Of a stretch of 64,000 nucleotides of DNA, positions 33,744 to 51,156 are shown piece after piece. The notes beneath the pieces are model-generated. The model saw only the letters and a program-made list of their open reading frames with translations, had not been told where the DNA came from and ran no database searches. The stretch's first letter is position 1, and each line of letters begins with the position of its first letter. The DNA comes from Actinoallomurus bryophytorum (lineage in GTDB: Bacteria; Actinomycetota; Actinomycetes; Streptosporangiales; Streptosporangiaceae). The translations under genes were made by a program, and so were the position numbers. The stretch is from contig NZ_VFOZ01000003.1 of NCBI RefSeq assembly GCF_006716425.1, forward strand, positions 310,001-374,000, written 5' to 3'.

Positions 33744-34025
33744 CCTCGACTCCTCACGCGTCAGGAGATGCCGGGCATGAAACCACCTTTGTCCCGTATT
33801 CGACCAGGGTCTGTCCGGTCGGTGAGATGATCCTCGGCCGGTGGGCGCAGGTCGCCTTCTTCGTGGTCGCGGGCCTTGGGCCCGGCGCTCTGCGTGGCCG
33901 ACGCGCTGGATGTGTTCGGAGCCGGACCAGGGGCAGAGCCTGGGGGTACGGGCGGGAGGCGAGCACGCGGTCTCGAGGAAGTCGGCGGAGGTACCACCTG
34001 CCACGAGCGGGGTGTATCGCCCGAT

Positions 34026-34127
34026 CCGGTTTTCCACAGCGGTTGTGGAAAACCGGTGGGTATCTCCCTCGGGATACCCACATAGGTGCTGATTTCTCGC
34101 GCGAGCCTGTGGACGGCCTGTGGATAA
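34026..34127. repeat. cluster of DnaA-box-like sequences and hairpins
   Basis: CCGGTTTTCCACA (34026-34038) and TGTGGAAAACCGG (34044-34056) are a perfect 13-bp inverted repeat holding two TTTTCCACA boxes. GGGTATC/GATACCC (34058-34064 and 34073-34079) is a second hairpin. TGTGGACGG (34108-34116) and TGTGGATAA (34119-34127, the exact complement of TTATCCACA) follow. Four box-like sequences in 100 bp are far more than chance in such GC-rich DNA, but there are too few for a normal actinobacterial oriC and no dnaA/dnaN nearby. Confidence 0.6.
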
Positions 34128-34295
34128 GCGGGCGCGTAAGGCCCCGAGACGCTCATTCACCGTGGGTCGTGTCCGGCTCGCACGAAGTACGGCACAGGCA
34201 CTCACCGAGATGTCGGGGCGGGCGAAGATGCCAGCGGTGGCGGAGGGCGGTGACGTGCGTGGCGAGGTAGCCGCGTGGTAGGCAGAATCGCGGGT

Positions 34296-34367
34296 GCGAC
34301 GGTGCGACGGTGCGACGGTGCGACGGTGCGACGGTGCGACGGTGCGACGGTGCGACGGTGCGACGGT
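34296..34367. repeat. tandem array of nine perfect octamers (GCGACGGT)n
   Basis: Seventy-two bases made of exactly nine copies of GCGACGGT without a mismatch. The array begins 24 bp after the lysE-type stop (34392) and is outside any supported gene. Perfect short repeats of this kind change length by slippage. Confidence 0.95.
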
Positions 34368-35285: not shown

Positions 35286-36008
35286 ATGCTGACCGCCCCT
35301 CCCCCGCCCGGCAACCGACTTAACCCGCCGCACCCGGCCACCCGCAGGCTGCCGACCGAGTGACCGGCGATCGCGGCGCACCCGCCCAGCCGGACCCGAC
35401 CAGGACGAACACTGCGGCGCATAAGGTCGGCCACGAGCAACACAACCGTGGGCCGCCCAGGGTCCGTCTCAAAGTCATGCTGTTGCCGTCTGGCGCCGCC
35501 AGGGTCGCGCCACACGGCGTTATCCACAGAACCCCGCTCTACTTCCACCCACCACTCCCCCCGCTGGACAATGAAAGTGGGATGGCACCCCCGGGCGGGA
35601 GGGCTCCAGGACAGGAGGGCTCCAGGACAGGAGGGCTCCAGGACAGGAGGGCTCCAGGACAGGCCCCGGCCCACACAGTGCCCGGCCCAGACAGGTGGGC
35701 TCCAGACCGAGCGGGACCCAGTTCGAGCGGGACCCAGTTCGAGCGGGACCCAGTTCGAGCGGAGCCCAGTCCGAGCGGAGCCCAGTCCGAGCGGAGCCCA
35801 GTCCGAAAACTTCGAGACAGGCGGTGGGAGCCTCAATGCACCACCCCAGACCCCGCCCGGACCGCACGGCCCCGCCGCCTGCCCCTGCGAGCGATCGCGT
35901 GAGCGCCGGCCACGCGACGACCTCGCCCCCGCACGCGTACGGTGACTCGGCCAGCCCGCCCCCGGCCACACAACCCCCGGCCGGCAGGCGCCGACCCGGA
36001 CCGTACGG
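35286..36008. other. gap between the LysE and kinase-like genes, holding a decayed mobile repeat
   Basis: No protein gene is supported in these 723 bases. The middle half (35461-35823) is a decayed copy of the miniature element described separately; the flanks (35286-35460 and 35824-36008) show no recognisable feature apart from the two divergent ribosome sites. Confidence 0.6.
35461..35823. mobile_element. decayed copy of a miniature inverted-repeat element with 16-bp VNTRs
   Basis: Homologous to the element at 49576-49826. The ends are degenerate terminal repeats (GGTCCGTCTC left, GAGACAGGCG right). Shared inner parts are TCATGCTGTTGCCG, a 31-bp identical block at 35520-35550 starting with TTATCCACA, and GGGATGGCACCCCCGGG. 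To the right lie two 16-bp tandem arrays: about four units of GGCTCCAGGACAGGAG (35598-35662) and six units of AGCGGGACCCAGTTCG or its variant AGCGGAGCCCAGTCCG (about 35706-35806). No clear target duplication remains. Confidence 0.75.
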
Positions 36009-48820: not shown

Positions 48821-49522
48821 GTGGTGACCGACCGTTTGCCTCACACGCTGCGCTCCGACGCCCGGGACAACCGCGAACGCATCCTCGACGCGGCACGCGC
48901 GGTCTTCGCCGCCGAGGGCCTGAACGTGTCGATGCGGGAGATCGCCCGGCGCGCCGGGGTCGGCCCCGCCACCCTGTACCGCCGTTTCCCCACCAAGGAG
49001 ACGCTGGCCACCGAGGCCTTCACGGACCAGATGATCGCGTGCCACACCATCGTCGACGAGGGGCTCGCCGACCCGGATCCGTGGCGCGGCTTCTGCCTGG
49101 TGATCGAGAAGATCTGCGAGCTGCACGCACGCGACCGAGGCTTCACCGCGGCCTTCATGTCGACCTTCCCGGGCGCGATGGACTTCGCCGCGGGCCGTGA
49201 ACACGCGCTGAGCTCGATCGCCGAACTGGCCCGCCGCGCCAAGGACACCGGACGGCTGCGCCCCGACTTCGTCCTGGACGACCTGATCCTCATGCTCATG
49301 GCCAACAGGGGCATCCACGCCGCCTCGGTGGCCGTCCGGGTCGCGGCCTCCCGGCGTTTCGCCGCGCTCGTGATCCAGGCGTTCCACGCCTCCCCGGAGC
49401 ACGCGCCGCTTCCGCCGGTGGCACTGCTGGCGCCCGCCCCTACCGGTCAGAGACCGAACGACGCGACGCCTTCCCCTACTGGCTCCACACCTACAATCAC
49501 CACCGCGGACACACCGCGCTGA
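48821..49522 (+). CDS. TetR family regulator with a disrupted C-terminus
   Basis: A 233-residue reading frame. The DNA-binding part is NRERILDAARAVFAAEGLNV, then REIARRAGVGPATLYRRFPTKETL, followed by a SbtR-like C-terminal domain (ANRGIHAASVAVRVAASRRFAALVIQAF). From about residue 206 (after LLAPAP, near 49441) the frame enters remnant transposase DNA in the wrong frame, giving a low-complexity tail (NDATPSPTGSTPTITTADTP). The original end was therefore replaced; the core fold seems complete. Start GTG 48821 or 48824, with TTAAAGT 8 bp before, so probably leaderless. Confidence 0.88.
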   Translation: MVTDRLPHTLRSDARDNRERILDAARAVFAAEGLNVSMREIARRAGVGPATLYRRFPTKETLATEAFTDQMIACHTIVDEGLADPDPWRGFCLVIEKICELHARDRGFTAAFMSTFPGAMDFAAGREHALSSIAELARRAKDTGRLRPDFVLDDLILMLMANRGIHAASVAVRVAASRRFAALVIQAFHASPEHAPLPPVALLAPAPTGQRPNDATPSPTGSTPTITTADTPR

Positions 49523-49575
49523 AGGGCCGACCACCCGCCGGCCACATCCCCAACCTCACGGGACAGAACATTTAG
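49441..49575 (+). pseudogene. IS481-type transposase, C-terminal remnant
   Basis: The plus-strand frame starting at 49441 reads YRSETERRDAFPYWLHTYNH then HRGHTALKGRPPAGHIPNLT and GQNI before a TAG stop at 49573-49575. This is the end of the DDE integrase core of IS481-family transposases (NxHRGHTALKGxPPAxRVxNLxGQ). Everything upstream is missing, and it joins directly to the TetR gene. Its stop codon is also the left copy of the target duplication of the next element. Confidence 0.85.
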
Positions 49576-49826
49576 GCCCTGTCTCCAGGTCATGCTGTTG
49601 CCGCGCGGCGCCGCCTGGGGCGGCGCTTGGGCGGCGTTATCCACAGAACCCCGCTCTACTTCCACCCGCCGCTGTTCCCGCTGGACAATAAGAGTGGGAT
49701 GGCACCCCCGGGTGGGTGGGCTCCAGGTGGGTGGGCTCCAGACGGGTGGGCTCCAGACGGGGCGGGGCACAGACGGGGCGGGGCACAGACGGGGCGGGGC
49801 ACAGACCGAGGGCTTCGAGACAGGGC
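49576..49826. mobile_element. intact miniature inverted-repeat element (MITE) with 16-bp VNTR
   Basis: A 251-bp element bounded by perfect 10-bp terminal inverted repeats, GCCCTGTCTC (49576-49585) and GAGACAGGGC (49817-49826), and flanked by TAG on both sides (49573-49575 and 49827-49829) as a 3-bp target duplication. It contains TTATCCACA at 49637-49645 within a 31-bp block identical to the copy at 35520-35550, GGGATGGCACCCCCGGG, and 16-bp units related to GGGCTCCAGACGGGTG and GGGGCACAGACGGGGC (about 49722-49806). It encodes no transposase. Ends and target length resemble IS5/IS427-type elements, so it could be moved by such an enzyme elsewhere in the genome. Confidence 0.82.
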
Positions 49827-51121
49827 TAGGTCGCGGGCGCCTGGTCCGCGTGCGGGGTGGGTGTGGCGGTCGGGAGGTCGCGCATGCGTCTCAGGGGCGA
49901 CAGGACGAGCCAGAGCGTCGAGAGCCCGACGATCATCGCGGCGATCCAGAGCGTGGATCGCAGGCCCACCAGGCCGGCCAGGACGCCGCCGAGGACGCTT
50001 CCCAGCGAGATCGTGCCCCACATCAGGAACTTCACCGTGGCGTTCAACCGGCCGAGCAGGTGGGCCGGGCAGCGCGCCTGCTGGAAACTGACCTCGACGA
50101 TATTGCAGGCGATGATGCCGAAGCTGGTGACGAAGCCGCCCACCGCGAAGAACGCGAGTCGCGCGCCCGGGCCGGTGAGCGGCACCAGCACGAAACCCGC
50201 CGCGGCCACCAGCACGGTCAGCCACAGGAGCCGCGCCTGGCCGAGCAGTGCGGCCAGGGGGCGCGTCGCGAACGCCGCGACGAGCGCGCCGGTCAGGCCG
50301 ACGGTGTTGAGCAGCCCGATCGCCGCGGGCGACAAGTGCACGACCCGCACCAGGAATACCACGATGATCGCGGTGTAGATGGCCTGGGCCAGGCAGAAGG
50401 TCGCGGTGCTGCCCGCGATCGCGCGCAGGATCGGGTCGCCGGACACCAGCCGCAGGCCCGCGCGGATCTCCTCGCGCATCCGCGTCGAACCCTCGCGCGG
50501 CGGAGCCTGCTCGGGCCTGTGGATCGAGCGGAGCCACAGCGCCGACCACAGGTAGCTCGCCGCGTCCGCCAGGACGCCGCCGGCGCCGGTGAACCACTGC
50601 ACGAGGTAACCGGCCAGTGTCGGCGCCGCTACGGCCGCCACCGACGCGTTGCCCTGCAGCCGGGCGTTCCCCTCGATGAGGCGTGCCCGCTCGACCAGCC
50701 GGGGCAGGTACGTCTGGTGCGCCACGTCGAAGAAGACGGTCAGCACACCGACGACGAACACCACGACGTACAGCTGCCCGATGCCCAGCACGCCCAGCGC
50801 GGCGGCGAGCGGAACCGAGCCGAGCGCGACCGCACGGCCGAGGTCGGCGACCACCAGGACCGGCCGGCAGCGGATCCGGTCACACCACGCTCCGACCTGC
50901 AGGCCGATCAGCAGGTACGCGACGGTCTGGAACGCGCGGAGCAGCGAGACCTCGAACGCGCTCGCGTTCAGGGTGGAGACCGCCAGCAGCGGCACCGCCA
51001 GATAGCTCACGCGGGTGCCCAGCTGACTGATCAGGTCCGCCGCCCACAGATGCCGGAAGTCCCGCTGCCGCAGTAGACCGCCGTTGTCCCCCGATGACCC
51101 GTCCGCCATCCGTCTGATCAT
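49826..51121 (-). CDS. MFS transporter (MFS_3/enterobactin-exporter type)
   Basis: A 431-residue MFS exporter: RDFRHLWAADLISQLGTRVSYLAVPLLAV, AWCDRIRCRPVLVVADLGRAVAL (motif A), DVAHQTYLPRLVERARLIEGNARLQ and the second half with FVTSFGIIACNIVEVSFQQA. This is the same subfamily as the frameshifted exporter at 2499. The stop codon TAG is supplied by the right boundary of the miniature element (bases 49826-49828), so the insertion changed or trimmed the 3' end. Start 51121 has GGTGG upstream; Met5 (51109) is possible. Confidence 0.9.
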   Translation of the reverse strand: MIRRMADGSSGDNGGLLRQRDFRHLWAADLISQLGTRVSYLAVPLLAVSTLNASAFEVSLLRAFQTVAYLLIGLQVGAWCDRIRCRPVLVVADLGRAVALGSVPLAAALGVLGIGQLYVVVFVVGVLTVFFDVAHQTYLPRLVERARLIEGNARLQGNASVAAVAAPTLAGYLVQWFTGAGGVLADAASYLWSALWLRSIHRPEQAPPREGSTRMREEIRAGLRLVSGDPILRAIAGSTATFCLAQAIYTAIIVVFLVRVVHLSPAAIGLLNTVGLTGALVAAFATRPLAALLGQARLLWLTVLVAAAGFVLVPLTGPGARLAFFAVGGFVTSFGIIACNIVEVSFQQARCPAHLLGRLNATVKFLMWGTISLGSVLGGVLAGLVGLRSTLWIAAMIVGLSTLWLVLSPLRRMRDLPTATPTPHADQAPAT

Positions 51122-51140
51122 GCAGATTTGCCACCGTTTC

Positions 51141-51156
51141 CGCAACCCAGGTTGCG
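51141..51156. promoter_or_regulatory. palindromic operator upstream of the MFS gene
   Basis: CGCAACC (51141-51147) and GGTTGCG (51150-51156) are a perfect 7-bp dyad with a CA spacer, 20 bp before the exporter start. It is of the size bound by TetR or LacI-type repressors. The regulator is not identified. Confidence 0.5.

What the first reader, a model, noticed from the sequence alone, without database searches (positions are those of the whole stretch)
49573..49829. Miniature transposable element with perfect ends, target duplication and internal VNTR
A 251-bp element has 10-bp perfect terminal repeats GCCCTGTCTC/GAGACAGGGC, TAG on both sides, no coding capacity, a conserved TTATCCACA-containing block and a 16-bp tandem array. 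A second, decayed copy is 14 kb away with arrays of other unit sequences but the same 16-bp period. MITEs with built-in VNTRs and a DnaA-box-like core do not correspond to a family I know.
Basis: partly seen in the sequence, partly recalled or inferred. Interest (0 to 1): 0.7.

Follow-up and report, generated by a model that had tools for sequence, protein, structure and literature searches.

The report
Repeat-carrying mini-transposon family in Actinoallomurus
The spotted element is one of about sixty small, protein-less jumping DNA pieces in a soil actinobacterium; each carries a nearly unchanged central sequence plus its own repeat array, and many sit exactly at the end of a gene.

Summary
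Window 49576-49826 is one of 60 dispersed copies in its own 9.47-Mb genome, very probably an Actinoallomurus species. The same ends bound short (about 44-70 bp), 161-bp and 227-bp siblings in congeners and a decayed IS5-family insertion sequence in G002, which matches A. purpureus. Three of seven sites tested are empty in relatives.

Corrections: the family pattern is TA, not TAG. The array mixes 15- and 16-bp units. A bacterial minisatellite MITE is already published (BrickBuilt, PMC4596501).

(2) The core belongs to a motif found without the MITE in 44 of 65 genomes of a sister genus and in some dnaX linkers. (3) A 1,341-bp IS110-family element sits at one fixed core position; all 5 copies found lie there. 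What the core does is inferred, not shown.

The parts
49573..49575 (+). Left flank TAG: host TA plus G. It is also the stop codon of a short transposase-like reading frame (49477-49575).
   Evidence: 32-aa piece, weak match to PF13683 rve_3, E 0.0038, below its curated cut-off
49576..49585 (+). Left terminal inverted repeat GCCCTGTCTC (family consensus TAGGGYCTGTCTC)
49586..49636 (+). Left arm (CAGGTCATGCTGTTGCCG...GGCGCC...), whose start resembles the end of the 161-bp sibling MITE
49637..49661 (+). Core block A, TTATCCACAGAACCCCGCTCTACTT
   Evidence: TTATCCACAG intact in 60 of 60 copies
49680..49713 (+). Core block B, GCTGGACAATAAGAGTGGGATGGCACCCCC and following bases. In five other copies an IS110-family element begins just after ...GGCACCCCC (here 49709); none is present in this copy.
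49714..49806 (+). Tandem arrays, 15-bp unit (49714-49761) then 16-bp unit (49754-49806)
49817..49826 (+). Right terminal inverted repeat GAGACAGGGC
49827..49829 (+). Right flank TAG. The overlapping CTA (49826-49828) is the minus-strand TAG stop codon of the convergent MFS transporter gene (ORF 49826-51145).
35460..35822 (+). Second copy in the window, about 363 bp: worn ends, intact core (block A from 35520), 16-bp arrays of other units

Best explanation
The element is a non-autonomous MITE mobilised in trans by an IS5-family transposase. Its ends are those of a roughly 1-kb IS5-type insertion sequence, and it inserts at TA (preferred context YTAR, typically CTAG). Because the element begins and ends with G/C, an insertion at the TA of a stop codon leaves TAG on either strand, so it can sit between convergent genes at little cost. 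The lineage took a resident 161-bp-type MITE and gained an internal cargo: a bipartite core that belongs to a chromosomal motif family, plus a short repeat. It then spread to about 60 sites, among the genomes searched only in this species. After each insertion the 15/16-bp units expand and contract locally by slippage, so each copy has its own array. The core stays almost unchanged because something recognises it. Most likely this is a host DNA-binding protein (DnaA is the leading candidate for TTATCCACA) that copies need in order to transpose. A 1,341-bp IS110-family element exploits the same constancy as a fixed landing site. Shown: copies, ends, sibling MITEs, decayed parent, empty sites at three positions, site-specific IS110 insertion, core constraint. 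Inferred: trans-mobilisation, slippage, protein binding and the identity of the protein.
For: 60 copies with common ends. The same ends occur in 7 of 8 genus genomes, the own one included. In congeners they pair at 44-70, 159-161 and 227 bp, and they are carried by a decayed IS5-family insertion sequence (PF01609, PF13340, PF13586) and two truncated left ends. Empty sites: L061 position in G006, and, more divergent, G002 and G007; L064 position in G006, G005 and G001; L078 position in G006. A stop codon lies within -2..+3 of the border in 23 of 45 left and 15 of 37 right genes that read towards the element. 30 of 49 fully classified copies lie between convergent genes against 13 of 61 gaps in the window (Fisher p 2.9e-5). 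L046 is a 161-bp MITE carrying the cargo. Core variability 1.1% (block A outside the search pattern) against 12.5% (spacer) (Fisher p 4e-18 on cells, but copies are related so cells are not independent). IS110: 5 of 5 copies found lie at the same core position; IS copies 98.1-100% identical while host cores are 85.1-94.5% identical.
Against: No intact autonomous partner with these ends was found in the own genome, only a truncated left end (L106). TA is present at both borders in only 10 of 47 copies with both ends located (left 24, right 23). At the empty sites relatives show TGA or no exact TA, so the duplication is not proven. Four of the seven joined sites gave no clean empty site. Several relatives hold other DNA at a tested site: the L061 site has 377 instead of 320 bases in G005, 346 in G003, and its flanks lie 1.5 kb apart in G001; the L032 site has 371 instead of 318 bases in G001, and its flanks lie about 390 bases apart in G005. 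Most junction alignments contain small gaps. Core constraint could also reflect a few recent master copies, although spacer and ends of the same copies vary. DnaA binding was not tested, and the motif is longer than a DnaA box.
Confidence: 0.85

Rival explanations
1. The copies are resident host elements, a REP/BIME-like family working as bidirectional terminators or spacers between convergent genes, and are kept for that use rather than being mobile parasites.
For: Enrichment between convergent genes and at stop codons. Short siblings of 42-70 bp read as near-palindromic hairpins (read by eye, not folded). Modest folding excess of the window copy: z -1.76 (+ strand) and -2.17 (- strand).
Against: Parent IS with the same ends, empty sites, burst confined to this genome among those searched (core in 60 places here, 1 in G004, 1 in G006, none in 5 other genus genomes). 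One terminator-like hit near the window copy (0.2 expected), on the minus strand inside the core and with a weak stem.
Confidence: 0.12
2. The core has no function of its own; it looks conserved because of a recent burst from very few master copies and because copies were found through the core.
For: The collecting pattern covered the first 16 bases of block A. Copies share ancestry, so variable sites are not independent.
Against: Parts outside the pattern are also constant (block A2 1.1%; block B1 5.4% and the following stretch 4.4%, largely from a few columns), while spacer (12.5%), left arm (11.6%) and right end (13.1%) of the copies vary. All 12 mismatches of real copies within the pattern fall in its last 6 bases (7.7e-6 if uniform). 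The 29 copies with both ends strong show the same. Of 26 loci fetched for an end match away from known copies (13, 13), none holds another core copy, except one already counted inside the longer L114 stretch; in the 23 where the 18-base end pattern was found again no clear 15/16-bp array lies near it, L400 being highest at 24 of 30 matches.
Confidence: 0.2
3. The element belongs to a known longer transposon or is the end region of the adjacent transposase gene remnant (49477-49575).
For: The window copy starts exactly at the stop codon of an integrase-core-like fragment.
Against: The same borders recur in dozens of copies with other neighbouring sequence.
Confidence: 0.02

Closest known systems
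BrickBuilt MITE of Porphyromonas gingivalis, and MITE464/PgRS described with it (PMC4596501; outline, abstract and passages read)
   Same: MITE with IS5-family-type terminal repeats, an internal minisatellite of variable unit number, intergenic, 19 copies in one strain, narrow host range
   Different: Terminal repeats as printed there (GAGACCTTCGCA) and unit length (23 or 41 bp) differ; the passages read mention no conserved DnaA-box-like core; [quoted passage not shown]
IS5-family insertion sequences of actinomycetes with CTAGGGCCTGT-type ends (for example L319 Micromonospora rosaria, L322 Amycolatopsis vancoresmycina, L275 Phytohabitans suffuscus)
   Same: Ends, CTAG flanks and 1,041-1,049-bp size; encode relatives of the L189 transposase
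   Different: They carry a transposase; the MITE keeps only the ends
IS621/IS110 elements that insert into REP sequences (PMC11208160, passages read)
   Same: An IS110-family element uses a dispersed repeat as its fixed site
   Different: Here the repeat is an array-carrying MITE; a bridge-RNA guide match could not be shown
Tn5/IS50 ends with a DnaA binding site (PMC3347997, passages read)
   Same: A DnaA site inside a mobile element, where DnaA can bind
   Different: There the site lies in the terminal end sequence; here it is internal and part of a longer motif

Membership tests
MITE derived from an IS5-family element | Terminal inverted repeats shared with an autonomous element | tested here: met
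   L189 right end and L166/L106 left ends carry TAGGG[C/T]CTGTCTCGAAGTC; the parent copies seen are decayed or truncated
MITE derived from an IS5-family element | Short and without transposase | tested here: met
   46 copies with both ends located and no IS110 inside: 187-720 bp, median 356. Too short for a transposase; frames inside the element were not scanned against Pfam.
MITE derived from an IS5-family element | Many dispersed copies | tested here: met
   60 copies
MITE derived from an IS5-family element | Target-site duplication | tested here: inconclusive
   TA on both sides in 10 of 47; TA is 1.2% of dinucleotides in the window; TA could also be part of the repeat
MITE derived from an IS5-family element | Empty sites in relatives | tested here: met
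   3 of 7 joined sites (L061, L064, L078) continuous in at least one relative; four gave no clean empty site
MITE derived from an IS5-family element | Movement by the transposase | not testable with these tools
   needs an assay
BrickBuilt-type minisatellite MITE | IS5-type ends with an internal minisatellite | tested here: met
   definition from PMC4596501
BrickBuilt-type minisatellite MITE | Same sequence family (ends and 23-bp unit) | tested here: not met
   best period 15 in 26 and 16 in 20 of 50 arrays; ends differ from those printed in PMC4596501
Site-specific IS110-family element in the core | DEDD_Tnp_IS110 and Transposase_20 domains | tested here: met
   PF01548 E 2e-23, PF02371 E 2.3e-18
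Site-specific IS110-family element in the core | Same target position in separate copies | tested here: met
   5 of 5 copies found; 37 of 444 first-look candidates were scored in the own genome
Site-specific IS110-family element in the core | Bridge RNA guiding to this target | tested here: inconclusive
   longest complementarity 10 with G-U pairs, typical of shuffles
DnaA box | TTATCCACA sequence | tested here: met
   60 of 60 copies; in the sister genus position 3 is A 110, T 18, G 6 of 134. That this fits DnaA-box degeneracy is recalled.
DnaA box | Binds DnaA | not testable with these tools
   needs a binding assay

The most novel reading that the evidence does not exclude
A MITE has captured a chromosomal, DnaA-box-containing bipartite control site (TTATCCACAGAAYNNCGTTCYACTTCC, then about 19 bp, then GACCATGG or GCTGGACAATG) and spread about 60 copies of it, each with an intact TTATCCACAG, through one genome. 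The site is kept because its binding protein, probably DnaA, is needed for or times transposition. By their number the copies could also titrate that protein and shift replication control.
Probability: 0.2. Interest if true: 0.78.

Novelty: new variant of a known kind. Interest (0 to 1): 0.5.

Why it matters
It adds a large actinobacterial family to the few described bacterial MITEs with a built-in minisatellite, and gives about 60 parallel arrays in one genome for studying how minisatellites are born and diverge. The nearly invariant core inside otherwise varying copies makes a direct test possible: whether transposition depends on a host initiator-type protein. The IS110 element gives a natural, repeated example of a fixed target inside another mobile element. 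The same motif standing alone in 44 of 65 sister-genus genomes suggests a regulatory site in this group that I did not find described.

Tried and rejected
IS630 family as parent (TA target): the 15 PF13358 hits in the genus show no pair of such ends; the closest single matches have 2-3 mismatches in 13 bases; rejected. Rfam: no match in the window at gathering score. Exact core pattern in genome contigs: 0, but that collection may leave out the window's own genome, so this is no evidence of absence. G-quadruplex reading of the arrays: an idea, not computed. Bridge-RNA guide search: no better than shuffles. Core as protein-coding: the 15/16-bp mixture breaks any frame; the dnaX linker copy is coding on the other strand, but dnaX of G002, G003 and G007 lacks it. 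A first end-finding script found too few ends and was replaced; right ends scoring low there (L033 for one) may be misplaced, and 13 of 60 copies lack one located end. Literature, judged from listings unless said otherwise: MITE plus minisatellite (gave BrickBuilt), Actinoallomurus plus MITE (10 papers, none relevant by title), IS110 and repeats, actinomycete MITEs (none relevant among 12 listed), DnaA box plus MITE (none relevant among 10 listed), IS110 nested in MITE (none relevant among 10 listed), the literal motif (185 papers, 25 listed; PMC12626423 on E. coli DnaA holds TTATCCACAG often, not opened), DnaA and Tn5. These are the searches behind any statement that something was not found described; only open-licence PMC papers are held.

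Full report
WHAT IS THERE. The window copy has perfect 10-bp inverted ends at 49576-49585 and 49817-49826, TAG outside both, TTATCCACA at 49637, and a tandem region that is first 15-bp and then 16-bp in period. The second copy (about 35460-35822) has worn ends, an intact core and 16-bp arrays of other units.

COPIES. In the own genome (9.47 Mb, 3 contigs) the element gives 96 matches, with 40 of 131 first-look candidates scored. The 16-base core pattern with up to 2 mismatches gives 65 places and none in the reversed control. Sixty are real copies and five are chance (whose output was cut in the middle, 19, 53). In 46 copies with both ends located and no IS110 inside, size is 187-720 bp, median 356; 13 of 60 copies lack one located end, and a few low-scoring right ends (for example L033) may be misplaced. 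Arrays in 50 measurable copies run from 26 to 558 bp, median 173; best period is 15 in 26 copies and 16 in 20. In the copies shown, units are alike within a copy and differ between copies, as expected from local expansion after insertion. Length polymorphism between strains could not be examined, because one genome of the species is held.

WHERE IT IS FOUND. With up to 2 mismatches the core (25 bases) occurs in 9 of 341 family genomes, the own one included: 60 in the own, 1 or 2 in each of the others. In the genus (8 genomes) a looser pattern finds 60 in the own, 1 in G004 and 1 in G006. The G004 match lies in the dnaX linker. The G006 match lies 72 bp upstream of a gene that I read as yraN-like, from recall. 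Genome G002 carries an insertion-sequence protein 100% identical over 247 residues to one in Actinoallomurus purpureus KCTC 19541, so the genus is very probably Actinoallomurus.

ENDS AND PARENT. The pattern GGGCCTGTCTCGAAGTCC (up to 2 mismatches) is in 7 of 8 genus genomes: own 33+33, G001 23+20, G002 11+15, G006 16+25, G007 7+9, G003 1+6, G005 0+1, G004 none; the reversed control gave 0 or 1 per strand. In the loci fetched from congeners the matches pair at 44-70, 159-161 and 227 bp, mostly flanked by CTAG, TTAG and similar; two wider pairs (524 and 1,316 bp, each with a 4-mismatch partner) I take as chance, and several loci had no partner. In the own genome short pairs of 42-65 bp occur. 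L189 in G002 is a decayed IS5-family element: DDE_Tnp_1 and DUF4096 domains and the same right end; its left end was not found. L166 (G002) and L106 (own genome) are truncated left ends of the same kind. Related full-length elements in other actinomycetes have ends such as CTAGGGCCTGTGTC and sizes of about 1,040 bp (80 of 369 relatives were kept by the tool, and my script recognised plausible ends in only part of those 80). IS630 was considered and dropped.

INSERTION SITES. Of 47 copies with both ends located, 24 have TA on the left, 23 on the right and 10 on both; TA is 1.2% of dinucleotides in the window. With a home-made codon-usage gene caller, 30 of 49 copies classified on both sides lie between convergent genes, 9 are ++, 7 are -- and 3 are divergent; 11 of 60 could not be classified. 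Of 61 gaps in the window by the same caller, 13 are convergent (Fisher p 2.9e-5). A stop codon lies within -2 to +3 bases of the border in 23 of 45 left and 15 of 37 right genes that read towards the element. The sequence suggests why: host TA followed by the element's G is TAG on either strand.

EMPTY SITES. I joined the flanks of 7 copies (L032, L056, L061, L064, L067, L078, L086) and searched the genus. The L061 site is continuous in G006 at nucleotide level, and with more divergence in G002 and G007. The L064 site is continuous in G006, G005 and G001, and the L078 site in G006. Against this: the L061 site has 377 instead of 320 bases in G005, 346 in G003, and flanks 1.5 kb apart in G001; the L032 site has 371 instead of 318 bases in G001 and flanks about 390 bases apart in G005, so other DNA sits there. 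L064 in G004 aligns only with gaps. One L056 match in G006 crosses the junction by about 25 bases and was not counted; the L067 and L086 sites gave one flank per place. Exact duplication could not be read, because the relatives show TGA or no exact TA at the junction.

CORE. In the 60 copies, block A outside the search pattern (GCTCTACTT) is 1.1% non-consensus, the adjacent spacer 12.5%, block B1 5.4% and the following part 4.4%, largely from a few columns; the left arm of 42 copies is 11.6% and the right end of 44 copies 13.1%. The 29 copies with both ends strong give the same picture. Copies share ancestry, so the Fisher value for block A2 against spacer (4e-18) overstates the certainty. Within the search pattern all 12 mismatches of real copies fall in the last 6 of 16 bases (7.7e-6 if uniform), so TTATCCACAG is intact in 60 of 60; of the five rejected places three do differ inside those ten bases, so the search could have found such copies. 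Base composition alone predicts about 8 TTATCCACA in the whole genome; the true total was not counted. A relative of the core lies on the opposite strand of the dnaX linker in own, G001, G004, G005 and G006, at 42 to 50 of 60 identical bases, and not in G002, G003 and G007, where the best is 29 to 31. In the sister genus of G285 (65 genomes; probably Actinomadura, from recall) a looser pattern finds matches in 44 genomes, 134 of them listed, with no control match. The consensus is TTATCCACAGAAYNNCGTTCYACTTCC with 8 invariant positions (the pattern allowed 3 mismatches, so some constancy is built in). A second block like GACCATGGA starts 46 or 47 bases after its beginning in 22 of 38 distinct loci, while 14 show neither form of the block (no chance level computed). 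Contexts include upstream of genes, just after stop codons, and inside dnaX. The MITE core therefore looks like a captured member of a resident motif family. L046 carries the cargo inside an otherwise recognisable 161-bp MITE (bases 30-165 of the sibling at 87.6% and bases 2-25 at 87.5%), which suggests how the long form arose, though a later recombination is possible.

IS110 IN THE CORE. Five copies (L048, L058, L060, L069, L086) contain the same 1,341-bp element at GATGGCACCCCC|GG...GG|CGGGTGGGC, with a variant left flank (GTTCCCCCT) in two. The element has a 417-residue open frame with both IS110 domains. A search with one of its ends found five strong places in the own genome, these five (37 of 444 candidates were scored there), and weaker matches in G001 and G004. 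The IS copies are 98.1-100% identical while the host cores are 85.1-94.5% identical, so most insertions look independent; the two with the variant flank may share one event. No guide-RNA match beyond chance was found: the longest Watson-Crick run is 9 bases and overlaps the likely start codon.

MECHANISM. Best reading: IS5-type transposition in trans, insertion at TA, local growth of the arrays, and retention of the core by a need for it during spread. DnaA is the candidate because of TTATCCACA and because Tn5 ends carry a DnaA site (PMC3347997, passages read); this is inference. The motif is longer than a DnaA box, so another protein is possible.

KNOWN OR NEW. BrickBuilt (PMC4596501) shows that minisatellite MITEs with IS5-type ends exist in bacteria, and IS621 (PMC11208160) shows that IS110 elements target repeats. 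What I did not find described are the size and host of the family, the constrained core shared with a free-standing motif, the stop-codon fit, and the IS110 landing site in such a MITE. I rate it a new variant of a known kind.

Noticed in passing
window 34020-34135 and 34293-34367: Three DnaA-box-like sequences within 100 bp (TTTTCCACA at 34030 + and 34044 -, TTATCCACA at 34119 -), followed by a perfect 8-bp tandem array GGTGCGAC x9.4.
   Followed up: no
L097, L126-L134, L214-L243, L326: Free-standing motif TTATCCACAGAAYNNCGTTCYACTTCC, often with GACCATGGA at a fixed distance, in 44 of 65 sister-genus genomes, 134 listed matches, control 0.
   Followed up: partly
L354, L356, L359, L360, L361 (dnaX): The dnaX linker of five of eight genus genomes holds a stretch whose opposite strand matches the MITE core; in four printed translations it reads GGDPTSIVQ...VD.
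   Followed up: partly
L107, L109, L111, L112, L115, L397: Short 42-65 bp near-palindromic elements with the same ends, several of them right after genes; possible terminators.
   Followed up: partly
L119-L122, L124: IS110-family element of 1,341 bp at one fixed place in five MITE cores.
   Followed up: yes
window 49477-49575: C-terminal fragment of an integrase-core transposase (weak rve_3 match) whose stop codon is the left border of the element.
   Followed up: partly
L200, L207, L211: Another IS5-type element with ends CTAGGGCGTGTTTTGTGGATCTTGG (937 bp in L200), in L211 close beside a MITE copy.
   Followed up: no
L051: One copy has no recognisable left end; upstream lies a different tandem repeat of about 39 bp.
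   Followed up: no
G001:C11:211831-213688: At the place of the L061 insertion, G001 has its two flanks 1.5 kb apart, so something else may be inserted there.
   Followed up: no
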